NCBI GenBank assembly: GCA_013306675.1
Contig: JABLUY010000246.1
Span: forward strand, 1 to 55,329
Length of the DNA stretch: 55,329 nt
Reading direction: 5' to 3'
Source of the DNA: Thraustochytrium sp. TN22
Lineage: Eukaryota; Sar; Bigyra; Thraustochytrida; Thraustochytriidae
Position 1 is the stretch's first letter. Each line of letters starts with the position of its first letter. Of this stretch, positions 2,049 to 52,080 are shown piece by piece. A program made the translations under genes and the position numbers. The notes beneath the pieces are model-generated. The model made no database searches and had not been told where the DNA came from. It worked only from the letters and a program-made list of their open reading frames with translations.

Positions 2049-2365
2049 GGCTGCCGCGTCGCAACGCGACGCGTCGCGGCGCCTCAAGCGCTCGCGCAAT
2101 GGGCGCTTGCCTGCCCTGCCCTTGCAAACTTGCAAAGGCAACGCAATGGATGGCGATGCGCAGACGATACGTGGGCGCTGTCCGGCCATGCATTGGCAAT
2201 ACAATGCAATGCGGAGAACCCGCCCGGGGTGTGACCGTTACGGCGTGGAAAAATGATTGAAATGCAAGCGCCTGAGCGCTGGCGAGCAGGAGCAAGAGCA
2301 AGAGCAAGAGCAAGAGCAAGAGCGTGCGCGCGGCCGTGCAGTCGGCCTCACGCGGCGCCCGCGGG
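2049..2365. promoter_or_regulatory. Divergent promoter region, ERICH2-like / giant EF-hand gene
   Basis: A 317-bp gap separates two start codons pointing apart, so both promoters must lie here. It contains an A+T-richer patch (around 2240-2262, GAAAAATGATTGAAATGC), unusual in this G+C-rich DNA. A GAGCAA hexamer array (2284-2322) precedes the plus-strand start. No core-promoter motif can be assigned with confidence. Confidence 0.45.
2284..2322. repeat. GAGCAA hexanucleotide microsatellite
   Basis: About six tandem copies of GAGCAA/GAGCAG lie just 5' of the giant EF-hand gene start, probably in its 5' untranslated region. Confidence 0.8.
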
Positions 2366-11300: not shown

Positions 11301-12286
11301 TGCGCGCAGCGGCGCTGGCCCTGGCCGACGAGGCGTTCTCGCAGGACGAGAAGATCATCATGGACCGCTGGCTTGCGGAGGCCGGTCTGAACGAATTCGG
11401 CGAGCCACCTGACGTGAACCAGTACCAGTTTGGCCCGGAGCGCGAGGCGCAAAAGGCGAGGCGGTATGCGTACGTGGCAAGCATTCACCCGGGACGGCCG
11501 TGGATGGAGGTGGCGCGGCTGCGCGGTTGGATGCCGAGCCACGAGGACCAGCGCAAAATCAGACGCTGGGTCCGCAAGACCGGCGCGCAGAGGCCGAGGA
11601 GGCACTCACCACGGCAGACGCTGTACGAGGCGCTCCTGCAGGTGCGCCCGGACAAGCCCTGGCTGAGCTCGAGCAGCAGATCAAGCGCCAGCTCGCAGCG
11701 CGCGCCTGCGCGGCCAGCGGAGGCGGCAAAGCCCGAGGTTGTCGCCGCGCGCCGCGCAAGGGTCAAGGGAGAGGTGGAGGCGAGCCAGTCCAGCGTGAGG
11801 CGCAACCTAGACGAGTTTGACCGCGATCTAGAACACGTGAAGCGGGCCCAAGCCGGCCTCGCACTGGACAAGCCGCAGGCGGCCGAAGCCGCCCCAGACG
11901 AGGTGCATCGCCTGGCGCGCGCCATGGCGCAGGAGGCCACCACCCGTGCGAATGAGGAGGCCCAGCTCGCTTGGGAGCGCGAGCAACAGCGGCAGCAGCT
12001 CGAGGCTATCCAGGCACGCCAGGCTGCCCTCGACGCGCGGGCGGCGCGCCTTGATGCGGTTGAGAAAAAGCTCCAGGCTGCCGAGCAGCATCAAAACTGG
12101 GCGCAAAACGTCAACGAGAACTTTGCCCGCGGCCATCGCAAGCAGGGGCGCGACGCGCCGCGCGTTCAGGCTCGTGCACAAGCCCGTGCCGGCGCCAAGC
12201 CGGTCAAGGCCGTCGACGACGGCGATGACGACGACGATGTCTGGGAGCAGGCCGTGCGCCTCTCAGGGAAGAATGTCCCGCACTGA
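2366..12286 (+). CDS. Giant EF-hand / SAM / Tudor-like / SPRY-like protein (~3,306 aa)
   Basis: The frame is open without introns for almost 10 kb. I start at ATG 2366 (MAASARERM); the frame is open upstream to 2324 but has no earlier ATG. Order: a Tudor/agenet-like N-terminus; residues ~190-1495 with repeated ~100-aa EF-hand units. Canonical loops include DKDQNGVIDRKE, DKNHDGLISRKE, DRNGNGAIDAHE, DKNNDGTVTRDE, DANGDGTISVEE and DESRDGQVDYFE, plus several degenerate loops lacking the final Glu. Three SAM-like domains follow (~1680-1745, 1766-1829, 1881-1945); the last two share 'DGETLLEL'. Then come a further EF-like pair (~2060-2140), a Tudor-like segment (~2195-2244, VRVRYGGGSATY), a SPRY-like region (~2261-2395) and a second Tudor-like segment (~2542-2597). 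The C-terminus has a Pro/His-rich linker, a duplicated 'GRPW/DKPW' module (~2992-3100) and a coiled coil. It is probably a Ca2+-responsive cytoskeletal scaffold; that function is inferred and no named orthologue is recognised. Confidence 0.85.
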   Translation: MAASARERMRAFAPNEVVECRVDADAPRARAYVRARVLRQVEPEGASGGRAQYEVQTLGAGTEARRTALVAAERMLKDGEARRVWAAVVHAVRAAADAPDMDPRKTLRAFLGDTSCVLDMFVNAIAELDPSFQTPHPDAWQQILWQQDLLNAAGDLVVCSKLHAHPDLAAFLAPATSPAIARPAKTARAQAAREVFQRFSPVKVADIFRVAAALKGSNISAAERDAIVRASAGFAPHTVCTLEQFLQIVDAAHIDPSGRLIPSVAESVPNAETSAADRAERELRAIVRQAHDNGLDCRDIFERFDTDFDNAISAASFIKGMEELGARDLTMELLEAMLAKQGLELSADGRIDYRHFLSLLAPKAWRRGSGVQAYRDNATAVAALEKLRRVVQGALGEDVPMDEAFSYFDKDQNGVIDRKEFAQGLAKLHIRLDGAQVRVLMHMFESNHEAHAKTIDFAAFRQELQRKRAVGIQYRIMEPSAAASTTAPAPLAPHEAALQRIGRLLERARSEGVDVREEFEALDPTLSRELPVDVVFDVLSRLGLSLAELTSESTPGSENTERLFQILKDALNTLDQVAVPPQVQRVRYALLLAYLCPDAWLDSSSRRKDEVAEDTFTHLIDLVAGELERGVTIQSIFAFFDENRNMLISGEELRAGLAKLKLKVDVRTVRLLMRKLEGSLQSLCVNTISFQAAIGKRIEARIHLEAMLRDAARRCSVGALRDAFLRRDKNGTGVVSLADAVQALGDVGVVLPSDGLPLADRLGRKHFLRRGPHRERALVYAALLDDVEKKAAGDAGSPLKTLWNGSGSPIASPSAATVTEQKTQAPQASSRSAGHSVQATQRAEVILDRLRTMVKAAVAQGSSLLECFEHFDKNHDGLISRKEFRVGLAKLHLEVTPQEVDVLMDHLHAPSHNAIDLVRFLQAMEHRATQEQSIKDLLTSLNALLRDAADRGSDLRTSFAFFDRNGNGAIDAHELEQGMVKLGIEATRLQVRALMGEFGSAQRDGRIDLAGFLRMMGVEEQRTTRLRILKTTQLGLASATQAAASTAGRRSTPPGPAGAAAAAGAAAASDHVGWEMLRAAFADVDAQNDLVIEVDDFKLVLRRLDLGLEEEDLDQLARMLDANRDGLVDAEAFLAELDPPGLARHLCAAVEHVQTQVARRRLDRHAALAPFQHFDLSHEGVVTKREFRCALSALGIRLAPLELKHLTNTLDLHGDGRVHYARLVHVAFARRSVAGGGRSLGGSSGGAGASSPGPTSPASPASPVGVDDPLAVLEADLQEFIASAESMNIPLKETFRHFDKNNDGTVTRDEFHRALMELGFECTTAQLHQLMERVRGATRRVHASGSPGAGGRRRSSSGHGDLSRDEPIDYAAFLEYWSNVRNPERATDKDTRSDKDVMKLVRRLRRELKAFLLDSSKRGIKASDVFSHFDANGDGTISVEEFEMALEDIFANNELYDQRVLRRFTETLDESRDGQVDYFEFLGIKRSALPGLTAAEAAEVKKQTWQSVFGTRQAAKTRRAAKAAARFAVEALLSRVEEEISTQGAVWVSVRQARAARLNNASFIRRNEDASRDRAYCERKARAPGAALQHSQQRPTSSSGDTAQDSEATVSQTSRAAARAMDRRMRLAQRVHAAETAAARMAEEAALRAEEAAEAQRMANVDEAATRHALGQLANVVFFATRERVVDFLDSIGLVRFQDRITSGMHRGLGACFVFSLANDRDMQEVLGTGSTIVARKVKRELLRLLSDSGGASAAARGLGVADPAHWNVKQVCRFAASCGLDAAPLERHEIDGETLLELDPVEAMEELRIANEVGLQVMLFRAARMHFFARAREAGPAGSGSSSSSGGRAGANGAAEHRAAVYKSLRVDDRTLPRPNDAPIEQWSTLDVVQLMSSLELPVQDVQALAVDGETLLELSDTEIEQELRIRGPQLARFRAAIEAVRQPPWLALGTGPYFEARLAAPAPGDAQPAVNQSARLACTFVKVGREHDIWLHLGPALAEAMQVAKRVLDTGAEAERARMLARPESSSDEEAAAEAERAAEVSGAKLDAEEIRLRDFVRTAARGGLPVLETLRARDEDKEGYLSWFHFEECLGELGYSAPDLGLLRLALQTRVPEAPRKGCISYERFYVECLNRAEFHHPVFARSRGSRTLALTTDGLTVSLLMDTPEGRDEASDRATGTPSAAAAAAAANFMNRIVRVRYGGGSATYAATVLCNHEDGAVDVRFEDSGDVKTVPMEWIDASSAEEPTADGVGVGASGGLQLQLARCETEVREGIHVWRMRVRHVAGKVVVGVASTGRYGQERFIGVDLRGNLVCRGYSATRARSMQRFARLDKRGFGSAESVLLRLDLDAQELCIFLAPEPINTKESAVEDLPELARIRLGEVYSAGTIAVRSATQNIKTFLRRHRQRVERSLLRKVQGQRQSVIPFAVLAHLLYDLGLEAKESDLLGFVQPFMHRRKHGVDVRAMIEGLNLSSERRWEEEEEEEEEGELESELEGGTADASVGAATVYTPAVLLQRAGDAVQFVEASVETGTHVLAKVGSMVEVRYGGGATWYRGEIVSVEQDASGAAAPTFTVRYDDGDVESGVRASNMRVLELEKAPAPTPQSRLVLQLFCRLLTYVPPRVVSKQGRSAPSAPAAPPRARVWAQGRHQEFELPGAETHAKQATAVVAAATPAMLAPAGTEVLLRGSTFSDVGGVRVQELLRKRLNAPDAVNWALTTGTRHEFYAPLAAKQQGLHGGAAGEEGGAVLTNPASVVADPAWTCVGAVDVKAMRKVASGEAGVPVSLRLDSSSAEHGCYYRVCFMGVVGMVGPRGDFRTLQVPVEPVRAVMKQSRVRVGGGWEHDVFDSLAQSDDADFSAARFFLLSGAIATSGEVSAAATPPLPMSEMTAAPPVSRKHKPPHVKGAARPKSRPTGKGDRPPPRREPPPPRSPRPEREHHDSEENLPQAKPPPQAQAHAHAHAHPHAQAQARHVRSPVRAAALALADEAFSQDEKIIMDRWLAEAGLNEFGEPPDVNQYQFGPEREAQKARRYAYVASIHPGRPWMEVARLRGWMPSHEDQRKIRRWVRKTGAQRPRRHSPRQTLYEALLQVRPDKPWLSSSSRSSASSQRAPARPAEAAKPEVVAARRARVKGEVEASQSSVRRNLDEFDRDLEHVKRAQAGLALDKPQAAEAAPDEVHRLARAMAQEATTRANEEAQLAWEREQQRQQLEAIQARQAALDARAARLDAVEKKLQAAEQHQNWAQNVNENFARGHRKQGRDAPRVQARAQARAGAKPVKAVDDGDDDDDVWEQAVRLSGKNVPH

Positions 12287-14469: not shown

Positions 14470-17400
14470 ATGGAGGCGTTATGCAGGATGGTGTCGGTAG
14501 TGGCCATCATGTTGGGCGCTGTCGTATGCAGTGAAGGCGCCGCGACGGGCGGGTGGCAGGACACCGGGCCGCTGAGCGACTACGGGGCGTTCTGGCTCGC
14601 GGGTGGCGGCGTGGCGAGCAACAACGCCTACAGGCCCGGCATCGCATGCAGCGGCACGAGTTGCATCGTGGCCTTCGCGGAGCTAACGAATGGCAAATTC
14701 AACAAGGGCAACGCGCATGTACAGATCAAGTACTCCGTGTATGAGGGGGCGAGGTGGAGCGACCCGGTGATTGCGCTGGAGCCCAGCAAGGCAGTGGACA
14801 CGAGCGACGCGCGCGGTCAGACTCAGCCGGCGTTGGCCGCGCTGGGCAGCACTCGTGGCTGGGCTATGTCGTATCGCAACATCGCCGATGGTGGGCAGGG
14901 CATCTACGTGGCTTACGTGAGCGCGGAGGAGGCCAGCCAGGGCATGCTGTGGATGGGCGAGGAGCGCGGCTATGGCACGAAGGCGTCCGAGGGAGGCGGC
15001 TACAAGCGATTCGCGGTCATCGCGGGCGATGCGAATGGCACGCTGACGGCGGTCTGGGAGTCGAATCAGGGGACGCTCCCTGACGGAACATCGATTGGGT
15101 CCGACAAGGACCTCCTGGCCAGCTCCATCTCGCTCAACACGGGTAGCGGCGAGGATCCGTGGGCTGGGGTGGCCAACCCCTCCGTCTCGTCTGCCTGGAC
15201 GGAAGTAGGCTCGGTTTACAGCGGCGTCGGCATCGATACGGTGCAGGACCGCAACCCGGTCATTGGCTACTCGTCCCGATCTGGGCGCGTTGTCATGGCG
15301 GCCACCGCGACCATTCTTAACCAATACGCAGATATCTTCGTTGCGGAGACACGTAATGGCGAGGGCGCGTGCGACTGGGAGGATCGCATTCGGCTAACGA
15401 ACCAGAATGGCAAGGACGCGGATGTGAACATCGCGCCCGACCCTTTCCGGGACGCCTGGCTCGCTGTCTGGTCGCACCGCGCACTCGGCTGTCAGTGGGC
15501 GCGCCTCGAGCCGAACGCCGAGACGGACCTGCTCGAGGTGAGCGAGATGGGCATGATGGACGCGCTCTGCTACCCATCCAAAATGAATGACGAAAAGACG
15601 GTCATTGTGGCCGACCCGGTTCGCGAGGGCCGCTGGGTCTACTTTTATCGCTGGCAGATCCCGTCCGATGAGGAGTACTACCGTCTCGCGTTCCGGCGAT
15701 CCACGGACGGCGGGCGCACCTGGAGCGGCGCGTACTTTGCCACGACTGAGGAGGAGGCGCTCGCCAACGATGATCTCTCACTCTTTCGCATCAATGCCGC
15801 CGCAACGACCCTGGGTGAAGTGCACGTGACGATGGTTCATCGAAAGGTGTCTGACACTGACTCGGGCACCTTTTCGGTGCTGTCAACTACGATGGACGCA
15901 ATCTTCGGCACCCTGGACGAGGCCGCCCTCGTGCCCCGTGTGGAGCCCTACGAGAGCGAGGACGTGTGGCCCTGCCTCGATGCGGACGTGCTTCCGGCAA
16001 GCGGCACGCGCGTCAACCTTACAAGCTTTTTGGTCAGCATGGCGCCCAACCAGCGGCAGTGCGTGCACGTGTCGGCGCCTGGCCTGCAGGACGTTGTCAT
16101 CCACCTCGAGGTGGAGCTCCTCATTGACCTCGAAGATCTCCCCGAGTACCGTGAGAACAGTCTATGCCCGTTCGACTTCCTGGCGGTGCGCGATGAGCCC
16201 GCGACCGCTGGCGAGGTCTTCATCGGCCCAGCGCGCCGCATGTGCGCGGCCGGCGCTCTACCGGAAATGACCTTCAGCGGAACCGACCTCTACATTGGCG
16301 TGATGAACGAAAAGAGCGCGCCCGACGAAGACTCGGGCCGTATCCCGGCAACCATCGTTGCGTGGATCACGTCGCCGCAGACCGAGGCGACGGCGCCGAC
16401 GCCGTCCGCTCCGGCGGCAGCGCCATTCGAGTCGCGCAGCGTGGCCTCTCACGCCGAGCTTGCCGAGGCACTTGGTGACGCTGACTTTGTTCACGGCGAG
16501 ATTCTGCTGCAAATTTCGAGCCTGGACATTGACGAGAGCAGTGAGATCGTCATCACCTCAGGGAAGAACATCTCTTTGATTGGAGCGCCAAGCGGGGGAG
16601 GACCGACGACTCTGATTGGAATGGAGTTCCTCGAAGTTAGGCTGGGCGCTGTGCTCTGGCGTTTGGAGCACATCGTCTTCCAGGGCGACTCGTCTGTTGA
16701 TAAGGGCTCCACGCGCCTTGGCGGCGCCATCCTGGTTCGCGGCCGTGTGCATGCCATGACGAACTGTACATTCTCTGGCTTGAAGATCAGCAGCATCGGC
16801 ACGGGCCAGGGCGGTGCACTCACAGTGGACGGCGGCACGGTGGATCTTGTGGAAGACTGCACCTTCTCAAGCAACAAGGCAGCCTTTGGGGGTGCAATTG
16901 CCGTGCTCTCCTCCGGGAGCATCGACACGATCCGGGGCTGCGCCTTTCGCGACAACACGCAGATCAGCCTGTCCAGCGGCGAGGCGGGCGCGCTCTACGT
17001 GGCCGGCTTCGTGCGCCGCATTGAGGGATCTGTTTTTAGCGGAAACTCCTGCGGCGGCGGCGGCGGCGCGCTATGTGTGCTTGGAGGCGGCGAGGTGCGC
17101 GAGATCGTCGGGACGGACTTCATCTCCAACAAAGTAGATACCAATGGCGGCGCCGTGGCCTTCCTCAGGGGAAGTCGCCTCCCTAGCCTCTGGCAGGGAG
17201 GCGTCCTGCGCGGCAACAGGGCTTCGGTCCTTGGGGGTGCCGTCTTTGCCTCTGGCAACCTGGCAGCGAGTTCTCCAAACTGCGGTCGCGCCGATGCCTG
17301 CATGGGAGGTCTGGTCCTGGAGGAGAACACCGCTCTTGCAGGCGGCGGCATGTACCTGGCAGAATCCTCGGGATTGCAGAGCATTTCCGTGGCCAACCTG

Positions 17401-20400
17401 ACCTTGACGTCGAACACTGCCAGGCAGGAGGGCGGCGGCGGCATCGCGGTCTCGGGCGACCTGGCCCTGGTGGTCTCGGCGTCGAGATTTGAGGAGAACA
17501 CGGCCTCGACGGCCGGCGGAGCGCTGGCGTTGCTCCTGAGCGCGCAGGGCGAGCTGTCCGGGTCGACGCTGAGCGCGAACGTGGCAAAGCAGCAGGGCGG
17601 TGCCATCTACGCAGGCGTGGGCAGCGTGCTGAACGCTACGAACGTGTCTTTTGTGAACAACGCGGCGCTCTTCACGTGCCGTGAGCAGAGCGCGTGCGAA
17701 CGGTACGAGTCGACGGCCTCGCGGCGGCGCTGCAGCGCCACAGTGATCGGCACGGACGTCGATAGTGAGGGGGCGACGGTCTTCAACACGCTCGAGTGCA
17801 GCATGAACGAGGCGGCTCAGGCGCCGGCGTCGTACGGCTGTACCAAGGGCGTCGGAGGCAGCATCTACATTGCGGGGGGCGTCACGGCGCAGCTCCTGCG
17901 CACGACCTTTGAGGCGATCGAGCCCCTGCCGTCGGTGCCGAGCACGGCCCTCTTCACAACGACGTCCGGGTCGAGTGCTTTCTTCGCGGACGAGGCCGGC
18001 CGCCACGTGTACTCAGAGTCGCGCTTCAGCCTCGCCGAGTCGAGCTTCGACGGCGGCGAGCTCTCCTTTGCGCCTTCGAGCGCTGTCTTGGGATGTGCCG
18101 GAACCTGCTCGTCGACGGGAACTTGCATCGCGGGCGACGAGGCCGCCGGACCGGCGCCTAGCGTCCGCTGCGTGTGCGCGGGCGCGTACGAGGGCAGCGA
18201 CGGGTACGAGGACGGCGGCTGCTCTCCCCTGCGTGTGCGTTCTGTGCGCGCTGTAAACATTGTCGTAAACGAGACAAGCAAGGAGAATGAGGGCGAGGGG
18301 AGCGACGATGGGGCCGCAGATGGCTACGTGGACCTGAGCTGGTCTTGGGACGGTGCCGCGGGCTCCTTCATCGTGTACCGCACGGAGTCGCGCGAGGAGA
18401 CGAAGAGGGTCAGCCTCAGTGCCTGTGTGGATGCGCCAGACGCCGCCAAGGTTGTCGCTGAATGCGCCGTAGTCGATGATGCGAGTGCCCGCTCTCTGCG
18501 AATGGGCCTGCGGCTCTGGGAGGGTAGCTTTTTTCGCGTGCAAAGTGTGGTGGATGGCGTGCGTACGCTGGACAGTGACGCCATGAGCTTGGCGTCCATC
18601 ATTTGCCCGGCCGGCTCGGAGCGTGTCCGCGCGGAGGAGGACGGCGCGTACGAATGCAAGCAATGTGCGCGTGGCTTCTACGCTCCGGATCTCGACACAG
18701 GGTGCGTGGCTTGCCCGAATGAGCTGCACACGACGCGTGGCGTGGCGACGAGGGTGGGAGACTGCGTGGCGCCGAGCGGATTTTACGAGGTCGGCGCGGA
18801 GGGCGATGATCCGAACGCTGTGGAGGTGGTGAGCTGCGGCGAGGGGTTCGCCTGCGAAGACGTGGGCTTCACGCTGGAGACTGTAAGAGTGCGTCCGGGC
18901 TACTGGCGCGCCGCCCTGGACGTGCGTGTGGTGCATGCGTGCCCAACGCCGGAGTTCTGCGTGGGCAGCCACCTCGACGAGGGGGACGACGTTGAAGATG
19001 ACGATGATGGGGATGATACTGGCATCCGGCGGCGAGATCTGTCCGTGTGGAGCGACCCGCTGTACTGCGCGCCGGGTCACACCGGTCCGTACTGCATGGT
19101 CTGCCAGGACGGCTACACGACCGACACGAGCGGCGCCTGCCTGGAGTGCACAGAGGAGGAGATTGCGAATGAGTGGATGGCGCTCGGCGGCATCGCGCTC
19201 GTGTGCTCGTTGACGTGGGTGGTTTTGATCACACTCTCATTCTACTGCTTGGCGTATAGCGAGCCTGCCACCAAGCCGACGGCGATGGGAAGGTTGTACA
19301 ACCGCCTCACGAACTTCAATGGCGAGGTGAGCAGTGGGCCTGTGCGGCTCTCCATCGGGTTTCTTCAGGTGGTGAGCGGTTTCCAGCGCGTCTTCGCCCC
19401 GACCTACGAGTGGTGGGATGGATGGAGCGTGCTTCCCAAGGTCGTGTGGCTGACCAACGTGGACGCGGGCGAGTTCGCGTACCTTGCGGGGTGCAGCTTT
19501 CGAAAGGACCACACAAGCCGCCTTTTGCTGTCCACACTGACGCCTCTCGTACTTCTCCTCGTGCTCTACCTGGCCTCGCAGACCTGGCGCTGCTGCATGC
19601 TGTGCCGTTGGCGTCGCAACCCCGAGGCATTCCATCGCAGGGCAGACCGGCTCTCGTCCACATCGTGGTGGCTCGCCAGCTACCTGCTCTTTCTGGTTTT
19701 TCCCTCGGTCAATACGACCATCTTCCAGACCTTCGTGTGCGATGAAATGGAGGACGGCGGGCGGCACTTGCGCTTCGACTTCTCGACCGACTGTGACGAT
19801 ATTTCGTACCTCCGACTGTACGCGCGGCTCATGGCAGTGGTTTATGTGCTTGGACCGATCGTCCTCTTCGTGGTGCTCATCTCAAAGAGTCACCGGCCGC
19901 AGTTCCAGGGCGTCCGGTACTTTCGCGAGCTTTACAACAAGCCGACCTCAGAAGAATCGCCGGTCATTTGGGCTAGCCTCCACCGCTACTACGAGGTAAT
20001 CGAGCTGGTCCGAAAGCTGTTGCAGACTTCGGTCGTGCTCGTCGTGGCCGATGGCACCGTCGCTCAGATGGGCTTCGCTATTTCCGTTACCTTTGCGGCG
20101 TCTACGCTGCAGAACATGCTTCGACCCTACCTCCGCGACAGTGACAACCACTTGGCCGCCTTCTCGCACGTCATGCTTTTCACACTGCTCATCCTACTGC
20201 TCATCTCCCCGGTAGTTCACAGCACCGTCTACACCCTCGGCAGCGTCATCGTCGTCATGGCCGTCCCTCTCACCGGCGGCGTCGTCGCCTTTGCGCGTCT
20301 CCGTCGGTACATGCAGAAATCTGATGCCGACGCGACCACCAGGAACTCCGCCGCTAGTTCTGACGCCGAACATTCGCAATGCGAGCAGGACTCGTCCACG

Positions 20401-20589
20401 CAGCACCCGCCGACGGAGCCGTACCACCAGCCAAGGGCGCCGCCGTCGTCGCCCGTGAGCCACGGCGCCAGTTCCTTTGAGTTTTGCCTTCACAATGACG
20501 ACCACACCAACGATGACACGTCCGAGATCCCTTGCGCAGAGGTTGTCCCGTTGCCCGAAGACGCAAAGCACGACCTGAGCGTCTTGTAG
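14470..20589 (+). CDS. Receptor-like 7-TM protein 1: propeller, CUB-like, beta-helix, EGF modules
   Basis: A 2,039-aa intronless protein. ATG 14470 is chosen because it gives a signal peptide (MEALCRMVSVVAIMLGAVVCS). The N-terminal ~470 residues resemble a BNR/sialidase-type propeller; an Asp-box (STDGGRTWSG) is at ~411. A CUB-like segment follows (~500-632, CPFDFLAVRD). Residues ~650-1195 are rich in GGA(I/V/L) turns typical of right-handed beta-helix or Pmp-type repeats. Next are an EGF-like module (~1209-1253), an Fn3-like strand region, a TNFR/GCC2-like Cys-rich stretch (~1378-1440) and a second EGF-like motif (CAPGHTGPYC, ~1533). Seven hydrophobic spans lie at ~1568-1940, with conserved FPSVNTTIF and YYEVIELVRKLLQTS motifs. 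The cytosolic tail is acidic and ends in SVL. It is likely a surface adhesion or sensory receptor; ligand and signalling partner are unknown. It does not look like a classical GPCR. It is the tandem paralogue of the next gene. Confidence 0.85.
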   Translation: MEALCRMVSVVAIMLGAVVCSEGAATGGWQDTGPLSDYGAFWLAGGGVASNNAYRPGIACSGTSCIVAFAELTNGKFNKGNAHVQIKYSVYEGARWSDPVIALEPSKAVDTSDARGQTQPALAALGSTRGWAMSYRNIADGGQGIYVAYVSAEEASQGMLWMGEERGYGTKASEGGGYKRFAVIAGDANGTLTAVWESNQGTLPDGTSIGSDKDLLASSISLNTGSGEDPWAGVANPSVSSAWTEVGSVYSGVGIDTVQDRNPVIGYSSRSGRVVMAATATILNQYADIFVAETRNGEGACDWEDRIRLTNQNGKDADVNIAPDPFRDAWLAVWSHRALGCQWARLEPNAETDLLEVSEMGMMDALCYPSKMNDEKTVIVADPVREGRWVYFYRWQIPSDEEYYRLAFRRSTDGGRTWSGAYFATTEEEALANDDLSLFRINAAATTLGEVHVTMVHRKVSDTDSGTFSVLSTTMDAIFGTLDEAALVPRVEPYESEDVWPCLDADVLPASGTRVNLTSFLVSMAPNQRQCVHVSAPGLQDVVIHLEVELLIDLEDLPEYRENSLCPFDFLAVRDEPATAGEVFIGPARRMCAAGALPEMTFSGTDLYIGVMNEKSAPDEDSGRIPATIVAWITSPQTEATAPTPSAPAAAPFESRSVASHAELAEALGDADFVHGEILLQISSLDIDESSEIVITSGKNISLIGAPSGGGPTTLIGMEFLEVRLGAVLWRLEHIVFQGDSSVDKGSTRLGGAILVRGRVHAMTNCTFSGLKISSIGTGQGGALTVDGGTVDLVEDCTFSSNKAAFGGAIAVLSSGSIDTIRGCAFRDNTQISLSSGEAGALYVAGFVRRIEGSVFSGNSCGGGGGALCVLGGGEVREIVGTDFISNKVDTNGGAVAFLRGSRLPSLWQGGVLRGNRASVLGGAVFASGNLAASSPNCGRADACMGGLVLEENTALAGGGMYLAESSGLQSISVANLTLTSNTARQEGGGGIAVSGDLALVVSASRFEENTASTAGGALALLLSAQGELSGSTLSANVAKQQGGAIYAGVGSVLNATNVSFVNNAALFTCREQSACERYESTASRRRCSATVIGTDVDSEGATVFNTLECSMNEAAQAPASYGCTKGVGGSIYIAGGVTAQLLRTTFEAIEPLPSVPSTALFTTTSGSSAFFADEAGRHVYSESRFSLAESSFDGGELSFAPSSAVLGCAGTCSSTGTCIAGDEAAGPAPSVRCVCAGAYEGSDGYEDGGCSPLRVRSVRAVNIVVNETSKENEGEGSDDGAADGYVDLSWSWDGAAGSFIVYRTESREETKRVSLSACVDAPDAAKVVAECAVVDDASARSLRMGLRLWEGSFFRVQSVVDGVRTLDSDAMSLASIICPAGSERVRAEEDGAYECKQCARGFYAPDLDTGCVACPNELHTTRGVATRVGDCVAPSGFYEVGAEGDDPNAVEVVSCGEGFACEDVGFTLETVRVRPGYWRAALDVRVVHACPTPEFCVGSHLDEGDDVEDDDDGDDTGIRRRDLSVWSDPLYCAPGHTGPYCMVCQDGYTTDTSGACLECTEEEIANEWMALGGIALVCSLTWVVLITLSFYCLAYSEPATKPTAMGRLYNRLTNFNGEVSSGPVRLSIGFLQVVSGFQRVFAPTYEWWDGWSVLPKVVWLTNVDAGEFAYLAGCSFRKDHTSRLLLSTLTPLVLLLVLYLASQTWRCCMLCRWRRNPEAFHRRADRLSSTSWWLASYLLFLVFPSVNTTIFQTFVCDEMEDGGRHLRFDFSTDCDDISYLRLYARLMAVVYVLGPIVLFVVLISKSHRPQFQGVRYFRELYNKPTSEESPVIWASLHRYYEVIELVRKLLQTSVVLVVADGTVAQMGFAISVTFAASTLQNMLRPYLRDSDNHLAAFSHVMLFTLLILLLISPVVHSTVYTLGSVIVVMAVPLTGGVVAFARLRRYMQKSDADATTRNSAASSDAEHSQCEQDSSTQHPPTEPYHQPRAPPSSPVSHGASSFEFCLHNDDHTNDDTSEIPCAEVVPLPEDAKHDLSVL

Positions 20590-21463
20590 AAGTAACACCA
20601 TGAAAGAAAGTCGACTCAAGCATAACCCCGCGTGCGGCCGAGTCCGGCCGACTTCTTCCGCTCTTGCAGCAGCGTCCGCGCGCCACCCTGCTCTATCGCT
20701 GAGCCCGAACGCTTCGGCACCCGCCTCCGCGTCGCCCTCATACCTTCCTTCCTCCTTCCTCTTCCGCCCGTGGCCGGCGGCCGGCCCTGTCAGTCTGTCG
20801 TGGAGTGAGTCCTCTTGCCTTGCAGTGGTGCCCTCCGACTCGGGCCCGCCCCGCCGCACGCCGCCGCGCCACGCACCCGGCCTGCATCGCAAGGCCCTGA
20901 GCGGCTGGCTGCCACCGCACCGCCGGCGGCCGGAGAGCCGCCGCGCCGTCGACGCCGAGTCGCCCCCGAGTCGAGTCGCCGCCGCGCGCTGCCAGCGGTG
21001 CCGTGCCGGCGGCCCGCGCGCGCGGCGCGACGCAGTGGCGTCGCCGTGGACGGCGACGGTACGTCGTTGCCCGCAGCCAGCACGCCAGTTGATCACGCCA
21101 TTCACTGCACATCATGCGCATGTTGTGCCATGCAGTGACTGGCTCATGATGGCTGGTGACAGACAGTCACGCCATGCATGTCATGCCGGGCTGCGGGCAT
21201 GATCTGCCTCTATGATGGCCTGCACGCGCGCTCTCTTCGGCTCCTTCCATCGCAGGTCGAGGAGGCGGAGTCGAGCCTTCAATCACAACTGCTCCAGAGC
21301 CAACGGAGGGCCTGGTCCGCGCGGCGCGGCGCGGCGCGGCGCGGCCTGCGCTCCGGCGGCGCGGCGGCAGCGGCGCAGAGCGAGACGCGCGGCGGCGCGC
21401 GGCATGGGCATGGGCGGCGGCGCGCGGCGGGCCAGGAGCCGGGGCGCGGAGCAGGAGCAGGGC
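20590..21463. promoter_or_regulatory. Spacer between the two tandem receptor genes
   Basis: About 870 bp holding the 3' flank of receptor 1 and the promoter of receptor 2. It is very G+C-rich (Pro/Arg/Ala-coding in every frame) with no supported gene. A CATGC/GCATG-rich patch lies at about 21105-21200. No repeat shared with the region upstream of receptor 1 is obvious by eye. Confidence 0.5.
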
Positions 21464-24400
21464 ATGGCGCGGGAGCGCGGGCACGCGCAGAGGCCGCGCC
21501 GCGCGGGGACGCTGGCGAGCGCGGCGCTGGCGGCGGCGCTGGCGCTGGCGACGGCGACGGCGACGGCGGCGGCGAGGGAGGCGGGAGCGACGACGGGCGG
21601 ATGGACGGCGCCGCACGTGATGAGCGAGTACGGGGAGCTGTGGATCGAGGGCGGCCGCGTGACGAGCAACAACGCGTACAGGCCCGGCGTGGCGTGCGGC
21701 GCGGAGAGCTGCGTGGTGGCCTTCGCGGAGTTCGTCGAGGGCGACGCGAACAGCGATGCGGCGACGGTACAGATCAAGTACTCCGTGAAGGAGCAGGCGA
21801 ACTGGAGCGAGCCGGTGCTGGCGCTGCTGCCCAGCAAGGCAGAGGATAGCAGCCGCGCGCGCGGCCAGACGCAGCCGGCGCTGGCCGCGCTGGGCGACGG
21901 GCGCGGCTGGGCCATGTCGTACCGCAACATCGCCGACGGCGCGCAGAGCATCTACGTGTCGTACGTGAGCGCCGAAGAGGCGAGCCAGGGAATGCTGTGG
22001 ATGGGCGAGGAGCGCGGCTACGGGACGGAGGCATCCGAGTTCGGGAGCTGGAAGCGCTTCGCGGTAATTGCCGGCGACTCAAACGGCACCCTGACGGCGG
22101 TCTGGGAGACGGACCGCGAGACGCTCGCGGACGGCACGTCCATCGGGTCCGACAAGGACATTCTATCAAGCTCCATCTCGCTCAACACGGGCGACGGCCA
22201 GGACCCGTGGACTGGCCTGGGCGAGTCGTCCATCTCCTCCGCGTGGTCCGAGGTGAACACTGTCTACAGCGGCGTGGAGACGGACACGCTGCAAGACCGC
22301 CACCCAGTGATCGGCTACTCGGCCGTCTCTGGGCGGGTCGTCATGGCGGCCACGGCGACCATCATCAACCAGTACGCGGACATCTTTGCGGCCGAGACGC
22401 GCGCCGGTGCGGGCGCCTGCGGCTGGGAGGACCGCATTCGCCTCACCAACCAGAACGGCAAGGACTCGGACGTTAACATCGCGCCGAGCCCGTTTCAAGA
22501 CGCCTGGCTCGCCGTCTGGTCGCACCGCAAGCTCGGCTGCCAGTGGGCGCGCCTGGAGCCCAACGCCGAGACGGACCTGCTCGAGGTGAGCGAAACTGGC
22601 ATGATGGACGCGCTGTGCTACCCGTCCAAGATGGGGGATGAGAAGACTGTGGTTTTGGCCGATCCGCTCCATGAGGGCCGCTGGGTGTACTTTTACCGCT
22701 GGAAGATCCCATTCAACACCGACTACTTCCGGCTCGCATTTCGGCGGTCCATGGACGATGGCCGCACGTGGAGCGGCGCATACTTCGCCACGACGGACCA
22801 AGACGCGATTGTGAACGCCTCGCTGTCTCTCTTCCGCATCAATGCCGCCGTGGACGGGCTTGGCGAGGTCCACGTGACCTTGGTCCACCGCAACGTGTCA
22901 GACATCTCCTCGGGCGTCTTCTCGGTCATTTCCACGACGATGGACGCGCTCTTCGGCGACCTCGACGAAGCCGCTCTTGCACCCTACGTGGAGCCCTACG
23001 AGGACCCGGACACGTGGCCCTGTCTCGAAGCGGACGCGCTCCCGGCAAACGGCTCGCGCGTGAACCTCACCAACTACATGGTTGGCATGGCGCCGGACCA
23101 GCGGCAGTGCGTGCACATTTCGGCCCCGGACCTGCCAGGCGTGGCCATCCACCTCGAGATCGAGCTCCTCATCGACCTGGAGGACCTTCCTGAATACCGC
23201 AACGGCAGCCTATGCCCGTTCGACTTTCTTGCTGTCCGCAACGAGCCCGCCACGAGCGGGGAGGTCTCCATCGGTCCGGCGCGCCGCCTGTGCGCGGCCG
23301 GCGTCCTTCCGGAGATGACCTACAACGGAACCGACGTTTACATTGGTGTCATGAACGACAAGCGCGCAGCGGACGCTAACTCGGGCCGCATTCCAGCGAC
23401 GATCGTGGCGTGGATGACGCCTGCGCAGGCCGTCGACCTCACGCCTATCGTCGACGCTGCCGCCTCCTCCTTCCAGTCTCGCACAGTGAGCTCCTACGAG
23501 GAACTGGCCGCCGTGCTCGTGGATGCTGACTTTGTTCACGGCGAGATCATCTTGAACGTATCCAGCATCAACGTGACCGACGACAGGCAGCTCTCGGTCG
23601 CCTCGGGCAAGAATATCTCGCTCGTAGGAGCGCCGGGGGACGGTGGGCCCACGTACCTTTATGGGCGGGAGTTCTTGGAGGTGCGGCTAGGCGCCGTGGT
23701 CTGGAGGCTGGAGAACCTTTCGTTCCAGGGCAAGACCTCCATCGCATCGGGCACCACGCGCCTCGGCGGCGCAATCCTGGTCCGCGGCCGACTGCACAAC
23801 CTGGCGAACTGCACGTTCAACAATGTGAGGATCACCAGCATTGGCTCGGGCCTGGGCGGAGCACTCACGGTGGACGGCGGCATGGTGGACCTCATCGAGG
23901 ACTGCGTCTTCTCGGGAAACAGGGCCGCCTTTGGGGGCGCTATCGCGGTGCTGACGACCGGGAGCATCGGCACGATCCGGCGCTGCACTTTTGAGAAGAA
24001 CATTCAGACGAGCTTGGCCAGTGGCGAGGCTGGCGCGCTCTACGTGGGCGGCCTCGTGCTGCGCATCGAGGACTGTGTCTTTACAGGCAACAAGTGCGGC
24101 GGCGGCGGTGGCGCGCTCTGCGTGCTGGCCGGCGGCGAGGTGCGCGAGATCGTCGACACGGACTTTATCTCCAACGCCGTGGACGCCAACGGCGGCGCTG
24201 TGGCCTTTCTCAGTGGCGCCCGCCTCCCCAGCCTCTGGCGCGGGGGCACGCTCCGCGGAAATTCGGCGTCCAGTCTCGGCGGCGCCATTTACGCCTCGAA
24301 CAACCGGGCTGCCACCGCCCTGGCCTGTGGGAGCGGGTTCGAGGATGCTAGCGATGCATGCATCCAGGACCTGACCCTGGAGGACAACACGGCGTTGTCC

Positions 24401-27400
24401 GGTGGCGCCTTCTACCTGGAGGCGTCTTCGGACATCGAAACGGTCGTGGCGGCGAATCTGAGCCTGACTTCAAACAGCGCCACGCAGGAAGGCGGCGGCG
24501 GCATCGCAGTCTCGGGCGACCTCACGCTGGTGGTGACCAACTCCGATCTGGCGGCGAACGAGGCAAGCACGAGCGGCGGCGCCGTGTCGTTGCTGCTCGG
24601 CGCGCAGGTGGAGCTGTCCGGGTCGGTCCTGCGCGAAAACGTGGCCAGCGAGCAAGGAGGCGCCATCTACGCCGGAGCCGGCACGGTGCTCTCGGCCACC
24701 GACGTGGCCTTTGTGAATAACTCGGCGCTGCTCACGTGCCGCGAGCAGAGCATTTGCGAGCTGAGCGCCTCGTCTGCGTCGCGGCGGCGCTGCAACGCCA
24801 TGGTTGTCGGTACGAGCATGGATAGCAACGGGGCCGCAGTCTTCAACACGCTAGAGTGCAGCATGAATACGGTGGCGCAGGCGCCAGCGTCCTACGGCTG
24901 CACCAAGGGCGTCGGTGGCAGCGTGTATATCGCGGCAGGTGTGACTGCACAGCTGCTGCGCACATCCTTCGCGGCGGCGGACCCGCTGCCGGCCGTGCCG
25001 GCGACGGCCTCCTTCACCACGACGGCGGGGTCCATTGCGCTCTACACGGACGAGGCTGGCCGCCACGTGTACTCGGAGTCGCGCTTCAGCCTGGCAGAGT
25101 CCACCTTCGACGGCGGCCAGCTCTCCTTTGCACCCTCCACAGCCGTCCTGGGCTGCGCCGGCACGTGCTCGTCGACGGGGACCTGCGTGGAGGGCGACGC
25201 TGCGTCGGGACCGGCGCCCAGCGTTCGCTGCGAGTGCACAGGGGCGTACGAGGGTGACGATGGCTACGAGGAGGGCGCCTGCGCCGCGCGCAAGGTGCGC
25301 TCCGTGCGGGCTGTGAGCGTCGGCGTGTATGCATCCTCCGTGGACACCGTCGCAGATGCCGCGGACGGCTACGTGGAGCTCAGTTGGGCTTGGGACGGCG
25401 AGGTGGGTTCCTTCATCGTGTACCGGACACAAGAGCGCGAGGGCAACAGGGCGGTGGACTTGGACGCCTGCGTGAGCGCGAGCGAGGCCGCCACCACGGT
25501 GGCAAGCTGTGCCGTGATCGAGGACACGAGCGCGCGCTCGCTGCGCATGGGTCTGCGACTCTCTGAGGGCAGCTTCTTTCGCGTGCTGTGCGTCGTGAAT
25601 GGGGTGAGCACGCAGGACAGCGACGCGATGAGTCTGGCGTCCATTATCTGCCCGGCCGGCTCGGAGCGCATCCGCGCCGAGGAGGACGGCGCGTACGAGT
25701 GCGAGCGATGCGCGCGCGGGTTCTACGTCACCGACCTGGAGACGGGCTGCGTGGCGTGCCCGAACGAGCTGCAGACAACTTCCGGCGTGGCAACGAGCGA
25801 GGAAGACTGCGTGGCACCGAGTGGGTTCTACGAGATCAAGGACGCAGGCGACGCGAGCGGCATCGAGGTGGTGAGCTGCGGTGAGGGCCTCAACTGCACC
25901 GAGTCTGGGCAGAGGCTGGAGTCGCTCGATCTTTTGCCGGGCTATTGGCGCGCCTCTTTAAGCGTGTCGGCGATTCACGAGTGCCCGGATGCCTCCTTTT
26001 GCGTTGGCGGTCGCCCGGAGCCGGAAAAGGACGAGGAAGACGGCCGCCGTCTCCACAGCGGCCACCGCCGCCTCCGCCGCCGTGGCCTGTCTGTGTGGTC
26101 CGAACCGCTTTACTGCGCGCCAGGCCACTCTGGCCCGTATTGCATGGCCTGTGTCGACGGCTACACGGCCGACGCGGGCGGTGCCTGCATGGAATGCTCG
26201 GCAGAGACGCTGAGCCGCGAGCGCGCCGTGCTTGGCGCACTTGTGGCTGTGGTCTTGCTCGTCTGGGGCCTGCTCGTTGCGCTCGGCTTCTACTTCTTCG
26301 TGTTCCGCGAGAACCCGCGGGGCGGGTCGGGTGGCTCTCGCATGCGCCAGATGGTGCGGAGCGTCTGCGGGCGCGTCAGCAGCTACCGGGTCACGACGCG
26401 GGGCCCCGTCAGCGTGATGATTGGATTCGTGCAGGTGGTGTCTGGCTTCCAGCGCGTGTTCGGCCCTACGTATGCGTGGTGGGACAACTGGAGTTTCCTG
26501 CCCACTGTCTTTTCGTGGCTGAACGTGGATGCGAGCGGCGTCACGTCGGTGGCGGGCTGCCTCTTGGGCGACAACCACGCCAGCCGCGTCGTAGTGGCGA
26601 CCGTGACCCCGGCGGTGCTCCTGTTGCTGCTCTTTCTCGCCTTCGGGGTCGCGCGCGTTGTGATCACGAGCCGGCGGCGGCACGACGAGGCTCTGTGCCG
26701 GCGCCGCCTCAATCAGCTCTCCTCGACGGCGTGGTGGATGACGGCACTACTTTTGTACCTAGTGTATCCCTCGGTGAACACGACCATCTTCCAAACCTTC
26801 GTGTGCGACGAGCTCGAAGACGGCTCGCGGCACCTGCGCTTTGACGTCTCGACCGACTGCGATGCCATCCCGAAGCTCACCGCGTACGCGCATGCCATGG
26901 CAGTCATCTACGTGGTTGGGCCCATTGCGCTCTTTGTGACGCTCATCCCGAAGAGCCACCGCCCGCACCTGGAGCGCGTCTCCTTCTTGCATGATCTGTA
27001 CTACGAGCGACGCGTGACTGGCGGGGCTTCGCTGTCGGCGTGGAGCAGCCTCCACCGTTACTACGAGGTCATCGAGCTCGTTCGGAAGCTGCTGCAGACC
27101 TCGGTCGTGCTGGTCATTGCGGACGGCACGGTCGGCCAGATGGGCTTTGCGGTCTTTGTCACCTTCGCGGCCGCCATGCTGCAGAGTAATCTGAGGCCCT
27201 ACCTGCGGCCCGCAGACAACGCGCTCGCGGCCTTCGCTCACATGCTGCTCTTCAGTCTGCTGATGCTGCTGCTCATTTCGCCCGTAGTCGAAGACCTCGT
27301 GGCGGTCGAAGTAGCGACCGTGCTGGTCGTCCTGGCTGCCCCGCTGGCCGCCGTCATCGTCGTCTGGTCGCGACTTGCCATTTCGCTCGGTATGGCGGCC

Positions 27401-27610
27401 AAGCAGCTGCCAGACGCCAAGACAGAGGAGGAGCCGCAGGCCAGCACTCTGCGCGGTGCCGCCTCGTTTGAGCGCTGCGACGACGACGTCGAGACCGAAG
27501 CCGGCAGTCACGGTCTCCTTCACGCCGAGATTGTTCCTGACAATGCTGAGGATCATGTCAGTGGCCGCGACAGCACCGCACGCGCTGATGGCAGCGTCGT
27601 GCTCATTTAA
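21464..27610 (+). CDS. Receptor-like 7-TM protein 2 (tandem paralogue of receptor 1)
   Basis: A 2,048-aa intronless protein. ATG 21464 is chosen because MARERGHAQRPRRAGTL leads into a long Ala/Leu/Thr signal-peptide core; the upstream in-frame Arg-rich extension looks untranslated. The domain order is collinear with receptor 1: Asp-box variant SMDDGRTWSG (~430), CUB-like segment (~520-651), GGA-rich beta-helix (~673-1216), EGF-like module (~1231-1271), Cys-rich GCC2-like stretch, second EGF-like CAPGHSGPYC, and seven membrane spans (~1588-1975). Long blocks are identical or nearly so between the two, for example GCQWARLEPNAETDLLEVSE. Divergence concentrates in the signal peptide, the acidic stretch before the second EGF and the cytosolic tail, which here ends VVLI rather than SVL. 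This pattern indicates gene duplication with tail divergence. Function is inferred as surface receptor or adhesin. Confidence 0.85.
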   Translation: MARERGHAQRPRRAGTLASAALAAALALATATATAAAREAGATTGGWTAPHVMSEYGELWIEGGRVTSNNAYRPGVACGAESCVVAFAEFVEGDANSDAATVQIKYSVKEQANWSEPVLALLPSKAEDSSRARGQTQPALAALGDGRGWAMSYRNIADGAQSIYVSYVSAEEASQGMLWMGEERGYGTEASEFGSWKRFAVIAGDSNGTLTAVWETDRETLADGTSIGSDKDILSSSISLNTGDGQDPWTGLGESSISSAWSEVNTVYSGVETDTLQDRHPVIGYSAVSGRVVMAATATIINQYADIFAAETRAGAGACGWEDRIRLTNQNGKDSDVNIAPSPFQDAWLAVWSHRKLGCQWARLEPNAETDLLEVSETGMMDALCYPSKMGDEKTVVLADPLHEGRWVYFYRWKIPFNTDYFRLAFRRSMDDGRTWSGAYFATTDQDAIVNASLSLFRINAAVDGLGEVHVTLVHRNVSDISSGVFSVISTTMDALFGDLDEAALAPYVEPYEDPDTWPCLEADALPANGSRVNLTNYMVGMAPDQRQCVHISAPDLPGVAIHLEIELLIDLEDLPEYRNGSLCPFDFLAVRNEPATSGEVSIGPARRLCAAGVLPEMTYNGTDVYIGVMNDKRAADANSGRIPATIVAWMTPAQAVDLTPIVDAAASSFQSRTVSSYEELAAVLVDADFVHGEIILNVSSINVTDDRQLSVASGKNISLVGAPGDGGPTYLYGREFLEVRLGAVVWRLENLSFQGKTSIASGTTRLGGAILVRGRLHNLANCTFNNVRITSIGSGLGGALTVDGGMVDLIEDCVFSGNRAAFGGAIAVLTTGSIGTIRRCTFEKNIQTSLASGEAGALYVGGLVLRIEDCVFTGNKCGGGGGALCVLAGGEVREIVDTDFISNAVDANGGAVAFLSGARLPSLWRGGTLRGNSASSLGGAIYASNNRAATALACGSGFEDASDACIQDLTLEDNTALSGGAFYLEASSDIETVVAANLSLTSNSATQEGGGGIAVSGDLTLVVTNSDLAANEASTSGGAVSLLLGAQVELSGSVLRENVASEQGGAIYAGAGTVLSATDVAFVNNSALLTCREQSICELSASSASRRRCNAMVVGTSMDSNGAAVFNTLECSMNTVAQAPASYGCTKGVGGSVYIAAGVTAQLLRTSFAAADPLPAVPATASFTTTAGSIALYTDEAGRHVYSESRFSLAESTFDGGQLSFAPSTAVLGCAGTCSSTGTCVEGDAASGPAPSVRCECTGAYEGDDGYEEGACAARKVRSVRAVSVGVYASSVDTVADAADGYVELSWAWDGEVGSFIVYRTQEREGNRAVDLDACVSASEAATTVASCAVIEDTSARSLRMGLRLSEGSFFRVLCVVNGVSTQDSDAMSLASIICPAGSERIRAEEDGAYECERCARGFYVTDLETGCVACPNELQTTSGVATSEEDCVAPSGFYEIKDAGDASGIEVVSCGEGLNCTESGQRLESLDLLPGYWRASLSVSAIHECPDASFCVGGRPEPEKDEEDGRRLHSGHRRLRRRGLSVWSEPLYCAPGHSGPYCMACVDGYTADAGGACMECSAETLSRERAVLGALVAVVLLVWGLLVALGFYFFVFRENPRGGSGGSRMRQMVRSVCGRVSSYRVTTRGPVSVMIGFVQVVSGFQRVFGPTYAWWDNWSFLPTVFSWLNVDASGVTSVAGCLLGDNHASRVVVATVTPAVLLLLLFLAFGVARVVITSRRRHDEALCRRRLNQLSSTAWWMTALLLYLVYPSVNTTIFQTFVCDELEDGSRHLRFDVSTDCDAIPKLTAYAHAMAVIYVVGPIALFVTLIPKSHRPHLERVSFLHDLYYERRVTGGASLSAWSSLHRYYEVIELVRKLLQTSVVLVIADGTVGQMGFAVFVTFAAAMLQSNLRPYLRPADNALAAFAHMLLFSLLMLLLISPVVEDLVAVEVATVLVVLAAPLAAVIVVWSRLAISLGMAAKQLPDAKTEEEPQASTLRGAASFERCDDDVETEAGSHGLLHAEIVPDNAEDHVSGRDSTARADGSVVLI

Positions 27611-51863: not shown

Positions 51864-52080
51864 CTCGGCGCGCGGGATGAGCGAGCGCCCGAGCGGGGGC
51901 AAGGGGCCGGCTGCCGCCGCTGCTGTCGCCGCCGCCCCTGCAGCCTCGCCGCCGCCGCTCCCGCCGCCGCCGCCCTGCCCCCGCGCGCCGCGCCGCCGCG
52001 CTCTGGGTCTGCCGGCGTGACAAGGGCGGAGAACGAGCGCGTGCCGCGACGACGTGGTCAACTACTAGGCCTACGAGGCC

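What the first reader, a model, noticed from the sequence alone, without database searches (positions are those of the whole stretch)
14470..27610. Tandem pair of giant 7-TM receptors with propeller, CUB-like, beta-helix and EGF ectodomains
Two collinear ~2,040-aa proteins share an unusual architecture: signal peptide, Asp-box propeller-like region, CUB-like half-domain, GGA-rich right-handed beta-helix, EGF/Cys-rich modules, then seven spans with conserved FPSVNTTIF/YPSVNTTIF and YYEVIELVRKLLQTS motifs. The layout (very large adhesive ectodomain plus 7 TM) parallels adhesion GPCRs, yet I see no GPCR motif or GAIN/GPS site. Domain signals are seen in sequence; the receptor role is inferred.
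Basis: partly seen in the sequence, partly recalled or inferred. Interest (0 to 1): 0.75.

Follow-up and report, generated by a model that had tools for sequence, protein, structure and literature searches.

The report
Giant nine-span protist surface receptors
Two neighbouring giant cell-surface proteins of a marine protist look like receptors with a nine-span (not seven-span) membrane core, part of a large gene family in which the same core carries different outward-facing domains, much like the contact-sensing proteins that trigger secretion in Toxoplasma and ciliates.

Summary
The tandem pair is real: uninterrupted ORFs of 2,039 and 2,048 aa, 65% identical, under purifying selection. Beta-helix and ephrin-receptor-like Cys-rich modules are supported. 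A sialidase-like propeller is weak; the CUB-like part rests on pattern only. The "seven spans" reading is not supported. A nine-span model puts more Lys/Arg inside than outside in 20 of 20 family members tested, against 1 of 20 for seven spans (segments chosen by eye). No GPCR model hits with confidence and no GPS site was found, although GPS occurs elsewhere in this genome.

The genome (thraustochytrid-like, carrying a PUFA synthase) holds at least 25 copies of this core; among 12 scanned, ectodomains are beta-helix, FG-GAP or LRR types. Profiles tie the core to five more distant proteins in the same genome, though the reverse search misses them. One of these five matches the TRP-like model PF06011 just under its cut-off and carries EF-hands.

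The closest published likeness is the CRMPs of apicomplexans and ciliates: Cys-rich ectodomains, nine spans in apicomplexans, triggered exocytosis, already compared with adhesion GPCRs. Homology to CRMPs could not be tested, and both structure predictions failed. Verdict: a new variant of a known kind; receptor or channel function is inferred.

The parts
14470..20589 (+). gene 1 (P0001 from its first ATG), 2,039 aa, single uninterrupted frame
   Evidence: full-length paralogues
14470..14541 (+). signal-peptide-like hydrophobic N-terminus of gene 1
   Evidence: hydropathy peak; no signal-peptide program was run
14548..15858 (+). sialidase-like (Asp-box) propeller region, gene 1
   Evidence: PDB sialidase E 0.0037 for the five-paralogue profile, BNR_2 in 2 of 5 paralogues; weak
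15961..16377 (+). CUB-like domain, gene 1
   Evidence: pattern only; no HMM hit
16429..18075 (+). GGA-rich right-handed beta-helix, gene 1
   Evidence: Pfam Beta_helix E 5.5e-10; 11 repeats against 0.55 shuffled
18094..18198 (+). EGF (Teneurin-type), gene 1
   Evidence: sub-threshold: E 0.012 in this member, best 0.0012, 4 of 5 paralogues
18640..18765 (+). Ephrin_rec_like Cys-rich module, gene 1
   Evidence: E 1.2e-4 (22.2 bits, cut-off 23.1)
19066..19149 (+). DUF7630-like Cys module just before span 1, gene 1
   Evidence: weak here (E 0.039); the model matches 18 of 20 members at E<=10; five invariant Cys in the 18 rows
19177..20295 (+). nine-span membrane core, gene 1 (predicted)
   Evidence: helix pattern of the low-confidence model
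20296..20586 (+). cytosolic tail, gene 1 (predicted)
   Evidence: follows from the nine-span model
21464..27610 (+). gene 2 (P0002 from its likely ATG), 2,048 aa
   Evidence: the start could also be an earlier ATG, from 21212 on
21596..22906 (+). sialidase-like propeller region, gene 2
   Evidence: weak
23009..23425 (+). CUB-like domain, gene 2
   Evidence: pattern only
23474..25135 (+). right-handed beta-helix, gene 2
   Evidence: Beta_helix E 2.9e-8, Chlam_PMP 4.3e-7
25685..25810 (+). Ephrin_rec_like Cys-rich module, gene 2
   Evidence: E 4.1e-5, above its cut-off
26225..27388 (+). nine-span membrane core, gene 2 (predicted; start transferred from gene 1 by alignment)
27389..27607 (+). cytosolic tail, gene 2 (predicted)

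Best explanation
The two genes encode giant cell-surface receptors of a thraustochytrid-like stramenopile. A signal peptide puts a roughly 1,550-residue ectodomain outside: sialidase-like propeller, CUB-like domain, PMP-type beta-helix, EGF, then an ephrin-receptor-like and DUF7630-like Cys-rich stalk. This sits on a nine-span core (N outside, C inside) with a short cytosolic tail. The core belongs to a genome-wide family of at least 25 genes in which ectodomains are exchanged (beta-helix, FG-GAP propeller, LRR+fn3). It is a distant relative of five other cores, some of which lean to the TRP-like model PF06011. Most likely mechanism: the ectodomain binds a surface or matrix ligand, the Cys-rich stalk passes the pull or conformational change to the nine-span core, and the core raises cytosolic Ca2+ or recruits effectors, triggering secretion or attachment, as proposed for CRMPs. 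Shown here: gene structure, modules, family, charge pattern, core relationship (by profile). Inferred: surface location, ligand binding, signal, any channel activity.
For: Nine spans: K+R inside exceeds outside in 20 of 20 members; seven-span model 1 of 20; eight-span 0 of 20. The second span passes a hydropathy threshold in all five bridge cores. The low-confidence model draws nine helices of 20 or more residues. Core family: 25 places in the own genome. Swapped ectodomains: 12 of 25 scanned; FG-GAP in 7, LRR+fn3 in 2, sub-threshold LRR in 1, beta-helix in the window pair. Relation to the bridge cores: hhalign E 4.2e-19 over 325 columns, 1.3e-7 to C161 alone; an HMM of the bridge cores alone finds P0002 at 1e-24 and P0001 at 7.9e-17 in the small set searched, with no hit at E<=10 in the 54 chance viral loci. 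Controls: cyclic-nucleotide channel of this window E 0.58, C156 PF06011-type genes 0.32. Bridge core C161: PF06011 E 6.8e-6, DUF7630 0.0054, EF-hands 1.1e-10. CRMPs are described with nine spans in Toxoplasma and Plasmodium, ephrin-receptor-like and EGF modules, and a role in triggered exocytosis (PMC9815656, PMC9670195).
Against: The reverse HMM search is negative: a profile of the five window-type cores finds none of the five bridge cores at E<=10, and the bridge profile scores several FG-GAP cores weakly (0.0057 to 2.3) or not at all. Window-type cores against C156 PF06011-type proteins: E 0.32; other members against C156: 0.0056, probability 6.5%; bridge against C156: 0.0013, probability 18%. 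The nine segments were chosen by eye with the charges in view, so that test is not blind; a crude scan gives ten peaks in each of the five bridge cores and seven in the window family. Tetrahymena CRMPs are predicted to have five spans, not nine (PMC9670195). P0001 has a weak JAMP hit (E 1.8e-4). Both structure models failed (pLDDT 40.6 and 28.3). No CRMP sequence was available. No expression, localisation or ligand data.
Confidence: 0.55

Rival explanations
1. A divergent adhesion-type GPCR: seven spans coupled to G proteins, with a lost or unrecognised GAIN/GPS module.
For: Ectodomain-plus-polytopic layout; seven hydropathy peaks; weak NCD3G (family 3 GPCR) hits E 0.04 and 0.012; Frizzled E 0.0078 in 1 of 20 core members.
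Against: Charge pattern rejects seven spans (1 of 20); no other 7tm family at E<=10 in the 2, 20 and 18 cores scanned (the last two show 25 of 26 families); GPS absent here but detectable in the genome.
Confidence: 0.08
2. An ion channel or carrier of the TRP-like (Flc/Pkd2, PF06011) superfamily whose large ectodomain serves mainly as gate, anchor or localiser.
For: Bridge cores C161 (E 6.8e-6), C399 (0.0019) and C444 (0.0015) match PF06011 in the same C-terminal half of the profile; a basic pair (RK or RR; QR in C427 and C166) in span 6.
Against: Window-type cores do not match PF06011 in the listed hits or the C156 genes (E 0.32); none of these bridge hits reaches the Pfam cut-off; C12 shows no PF06011 hit; no pore identified.
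Confidence: 0.27
3. A passive adhesin: the ectodomain attaches the cell and the membrane core is only an elaborate anchor.
For: PMP-type beta-helix and CUB-like modules occur in adhesins (general knowledge); tandem copies in the genome.
Against: The core is kept across very different ectodomains, which a mere anchor does not need; the ectodomain changes more slowly (dN 0.16 propeller, 0.14 CUB-like) than the core (0.38) between the window pair, unlike diversifying adhesins. The slower ectodomain can also be read in favour of this rival, since the core is the less constrained part.
Confidence: 0.1

Closest known systems
CRMPs (cysteine repeat modular proteins) of apicomplexans and ciliates
   Same: Very large ectodomain with ephrin-receptor-like and EGF modules (parallel beta-helix repeats are also in the paper's domain key), nine C-terminal spans in Toxoplasma and Plasmodium, N outside and C inside for TgCRMPa, compared with adhesion GPCRs in print (PMC9815656: passages; PMC9670195: passages, and first part of the Discussion).
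   Different: Sialidase-like and CUB-like modules are not in the passages read; at least 25 copies here against two in T. gondii and four in P. berghei; Tetrahymena CRMPs are predicted with five spans and with a GAIN domain by HHpred; sequence homology not tested (no CRMP sequence in reach).
TRP-like Flc/Pkd2 family, Pfam PF06011
   Same: Polytopic core; bridge cores C161, C444 and C399 match its C-terminal half, below the cut-off.
   Different: Window-type cores do not match it directly; Cys-rich stalk instead of an ML-like domain (the latter recalled).
Adhesion GPCRs
   Same: Large modular ectodomain on a membrane core.
   Different: Nine predicted spans, no GPS, no 7tm_2 match.
Pfam DUF7630 (PF24633)
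   Same: Cys module directly before span 1; the model matches 18 of 20 members at E<=10, four places of the genome above its cut-off.
   Different: Uncharacterised; no paper in the library names it; P0001 is only weakly matched (E 0.039) and no window gene is over the cut-off.

Membership tests
Adhesion GPCR | seven spans | tested here: not met
   nine-span model fits 20 of 20, seven-span 1 of 20; prediction, segments chosen by eye
Adhesion GPCR | GAIN domain with GPS | tested here: not met
   no Pfam hit at E<=1; positive control (C412, two genes)
Adhesion GPCR | 7tm_2-type membrane profile | tested here: not met
   (the last two show 25 of 26 families)
CRMP | ephrin-receptor-like/EGF Cys-rich modules before the membrane core | tested here: met
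   Ephrin_rec_like; EGF sub-threshold
CRMP | nine C-terminal spans, N outside | tested here: met
   by prediction only: (charge pattern); no confident model
CRMP | sequence or structural homology of the nine-span core to apicomplexan or ciliate CRMPs | not tested
   no CRMP sequence in the collections used; model too poor for a fold comparison
CRMP | role in triggered exocytosis | not testable with these tools
   needs experiment
TRP-like PF06011 | match of the membrane core to the family profile | tested here: inconclusive
   window cores: no listed match; bridge cores below the cut-off; hhalign with C156 genes 0.32
TRP-like PF06011 | cation conduction | not testable with these tools
   needs experiment

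The most novel reading that the evidence does not exclude
A repertoire of at least 25 ectodomain-swapping, contact-gated nine-span receptor-channels. CRMP-type sensors of touch and secretion are then not an alveolate invention. They would be one branch of an old protist superfamily that joins TRP-like channels (one with EF-hands) to adhesion-GPCR-like ectodomains, and the window pair would be a sialidase-like/CUB/beta-helix branch reading glycan surfaces.
Probability: 0.3. Interest if true: 0.8.

Novelty: new variant of a known kind. Interest (0 to 1): 0.5.

Why it matters
CRMPs are needed for rhoptry discharge in Toxoplasma and, in Tetrahymena, for mucocyst release (PMC9670195, PMC9815656). 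How they signal is open in the passages read, and one of the two papers calls them apicomplexan-specific. A large, ectodomain-swapping family with the same layout in a free-living stramenopile would give a tractable system and an evolutionary frame. In-genome intermediates that lean to TRP-like proteins make the receptor-or-channel question directly testable.

Tried and rejected
Seven-span and eight-span models were rejected on charge. GPCR membership was rejected (above). JAMP (PF05571) was considered: its only hit in the genome at E<=0.001 is 49 residues of P0001 covering the Cys motif and span 1, so it is treated as a local likeness. The TcdB_toxin_midN hits in three FG-GAP relatives are short and below the cut-off, and the one in C159 overlaps an FG-GAP match; no toxin is claimed.

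Searches for relatives outside the genome found nothing: phages, plasmids, viral contigs, GTDB genomes. Those collections are not eukaryotic, so this says little about distribution. Two hand-made motif patterns gave 54 stretches of viral contigs, none related by tblastn; they later served as background. PDB by sequence: nothing at E<=1 for P0001; a designed protein at E 0.3 for the A2 profile; nothing better than E 0.52 for the C444 core. The models of the core (pLDDT 40.6) and of propeller+CUB (28.3) were too poor, so no fold search was run.

Papers: no description of this family in stramenopiles was found with the searches, in an open-access library; apart from the two CRMP papers only listings were seen.
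Full report
What is there. The window lies in a 37.9 Mb assembly (G000, contig C162). The genome carries a PfaA-type PUFA synthase (2,540 bits with its neighbours in the frame), and the window is GC-rich with long single-frame genes, so I take it for a thraustochytrid or a near relative. This is an inference; no rRNA was examined. Gene 1 (14470-20589, 2,039 aa) and gene 2 (21464-27610, 2,048 aa) are collinear, single-frame and 65% identical. NG86 dN/dS between them is about 0.26 (dN 0.238, dS 0.912). By part, dN is 0.14 in the CUB-like, 0.16 in the propeller, 0.22 in the EGF-FN3 stretch, 0.23 in the beta-helix, 0.29 in the Cys-rich stalk, 0.38 in the membrane core and 0.63 in the tail; dN/dS is 0.18, 0.21, 0.18, 0.29, 0.27, 0.31 and 0.29. 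The ectodomain is the better conserved half, which speaks against antigenic diversification.

Ectodomain. The beta-helix is firm (11 GGA repeats in each protein against shuffle means of 0.55 and 0.43, maxima 4 and 3 of 2,000). The Ephrin_rec_like module is just below its cut-off in P0001 and above it in P0002. EGF is below the cut-off but found in 4 of 5 paralogues. The propeller rests on sialidase profiles (PDB E 0.0037; BNR_2 in 2 of 5 paralogues, best 5.8e-4; in P0001 alone an unrelated SEN2-like model scores better) and a single strict Asp-box in 4 of 5 paralogues. The CUB-like stretch is recognisable only by its Cys and hydrophobic pattern and has no HMM support.

Membrane core. But with the N-terminus outside (signal-peptide-like start, Cys-rich N-terminal part), seven spans would put Arg-rich loops outside. 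I compared models on alignment A2, which holds 20 of the 25 core members; the other five were not yet fetched, and four of them never were. With nine spans, mean K+R is 16.4 inside and 6.1 outside, inside greater in 20 of 20 members; with seven spans 7.9 against 10.7, 1 of 20; with eight spans 5.2 against 13.8, 0 of 20. The nine segments were drawn by eye with the charges in view, so this is not a blind test. The two extra crossings are the segment around FLQVVSGFQRVF and the split of one hydrophobic stretch into spans 6 and 7. In the five more distant bridge cores the former passes the hydropathy threshold (1.21 to 1.95); each of these gives ten peaks in a crude scan, one of which overlaps or adjoins another span or lies before span 3. 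The AlphaFold model is poor (pLDDT 40.6) but draws nine helices of 20 or more residues; I give this little weight.

A family with exchanged ectodomains. Protein searches of the own genome give 25 places with this core: C162 two (window), C219 three in tandem, C33 seven in tandem, C427, C166 and C111 two each, and one each on C332, C39, C401, C196, C159, C398 and C402 (lower bounds by the tool's own note; one C33 copy has a stop inside its match). Pfam scans of 12 of the 25 (window pair, ten others) show beta-helix in the window pair; FG-GAP propellers in 7 (C39, one of C111, C159, C398, one of C166, C196, C33 at 275 kb); LRR+fn3 in 2 (C332, C401); and a sub-threshold LRR in C402. The three C219 genes align over most of their length with the window pair. 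A tree of 21 of the 25 cores plus the five bridge cores groups the five window-type cores (97/99). It has long branches, and its deep joins should not be trusted.

What the core is related to. Pfam DUF7630 matches the Cys module just before span 1 in 18 of 20 members at E<=10, P0001 only at 0.039. A genome search with that model brought up two further proteins (C444, C12), and a PF06011 search brought up C161 and C399 (two genes). Aligned as A6 (five bridge cores), they match the window-type cores A8 by hhalign with E 4.2e-19 over 325 columns, C161 alone with 1.3e-7, and the 13-member alignment A9 with 1.5e-14. A9 leaves out three rows of A2 (C33 at 264 and 281 kb, the second C427 gene) and adds C398. 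A8 and A9 match each other with 5.5e-33. An HMM of A6, which contains no window-type core, finds P0002 at 1e-24 and P0001 at 7.9e-17 among the six-frame translations of the loci held, with no hit at E<=10 in the 54 chance viral loci. Against this: the same profile scores several FG-GAP cores weakly (0.0057 to 2.3) or not at all, and the reverse search, with the narrow profile of five window-type cores, finds none of the five bridge cores. Negative controls by hhalign: the cyclic-nucleotide-gated channel of this window 0.58; the four PF06011-type genes on C156, three of them over the cut-off, 0.32. The bridge cores lean to PF06011: C161 E 6.8e-6 (25.6 bits, cut-off 28.5; 28.0 bits), C399 0.0019, C444 0.0015; C12 gives no such hit. 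The profile comparison of bridge with C156 is only E 0.0013, probability 18%, and of A9 with C156 0.0056, probability 6.5%. So 'TRP-like' is a lead for the superfamily, not a membership.

Compared with what is known. In the papers seen, CRMPs of Toxoplasma and Plasmodium have Cys-rich, ephrin-receptor-like and EGF-like modules and nine spans (PMC9815656; passages). Dictyostelium proteins are said there to have a similar nine-span part. Two of three Tetrahymena CRMP genes could be knocked out fully and both were needed for mucocyst discharge; Toxoplasma CRMPs are needed for rhoptry discharge. Tetrahymena CRMPs are predicted with five spans, and a GAIN domain by HHpred. The authors discuss a GPCR-like, adhesion-GPCR-analogous model while noting that CRMPs lack the classical seven spans (PMC9670195; passages, and first part of the Discussion). 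That is the closest likeness to the window proteins in layout and topology that I found. I could not test sequence homology to CRMPs, so 'works like a CRMP' is my reading and 'is a CRMP' is not claimed.

Verdict. The pair belongs to a large family in this genome that I found described in none of my paper searches (listed under Tried and rejected). The receptor function, the ligand, and whether the core conducts ions remain open.

Noticed in passing
window 2324-12286 +: 3,320-aa frame with many EF-hand pairs (EF-hand_7 E 1.2e-52, seven stretches) and weak SAM and Tudor hits.
   Followed up: no
window 45418-48450 -: Cyclic-nucleotide-gated-type channel (Ion_trans E 1.5e-11, cNMP_binding 7.2e-13); used as a negative control.
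   Followed up: partly
window 33453-34550 +: Protein kinase (Pkinase E 4.6e-85; CaMK-like by eye). An armadillo-repeat protein lies at 50145-52061 - (Arm E 1e-10).
   Followed up: no
L086 (own genome C161:5254-8568): Part of a 3,052-aa frame that combines DUF7630 (E 0.0054), TRP-like PF06011 (6.8e-6) and C-terminal EF-hands (1.1e-10): a candidate Ca2+-regulated bridge protein.
   Followed up: partly
own genome C156 (L084, L085, L087, L088): Cluster of four PF06011-type genes, two over the family cut-off alone, a third with its neighbours in the frame, the fourth below it.
   Followed up: partly
own genome C412:116420-127182: Two frames of 2,979 and 3,029 aa with GPS sites (E 8.5e-7, 1.1e-5): the genome does have GPS proteins elsewhere.
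   Followed up: no
own genome C33:280661-282268: One copy of the seven-gene C33 array has a stop inside its match (1 TAA); possibly a decayed or spliced copy.
   Followed up: no
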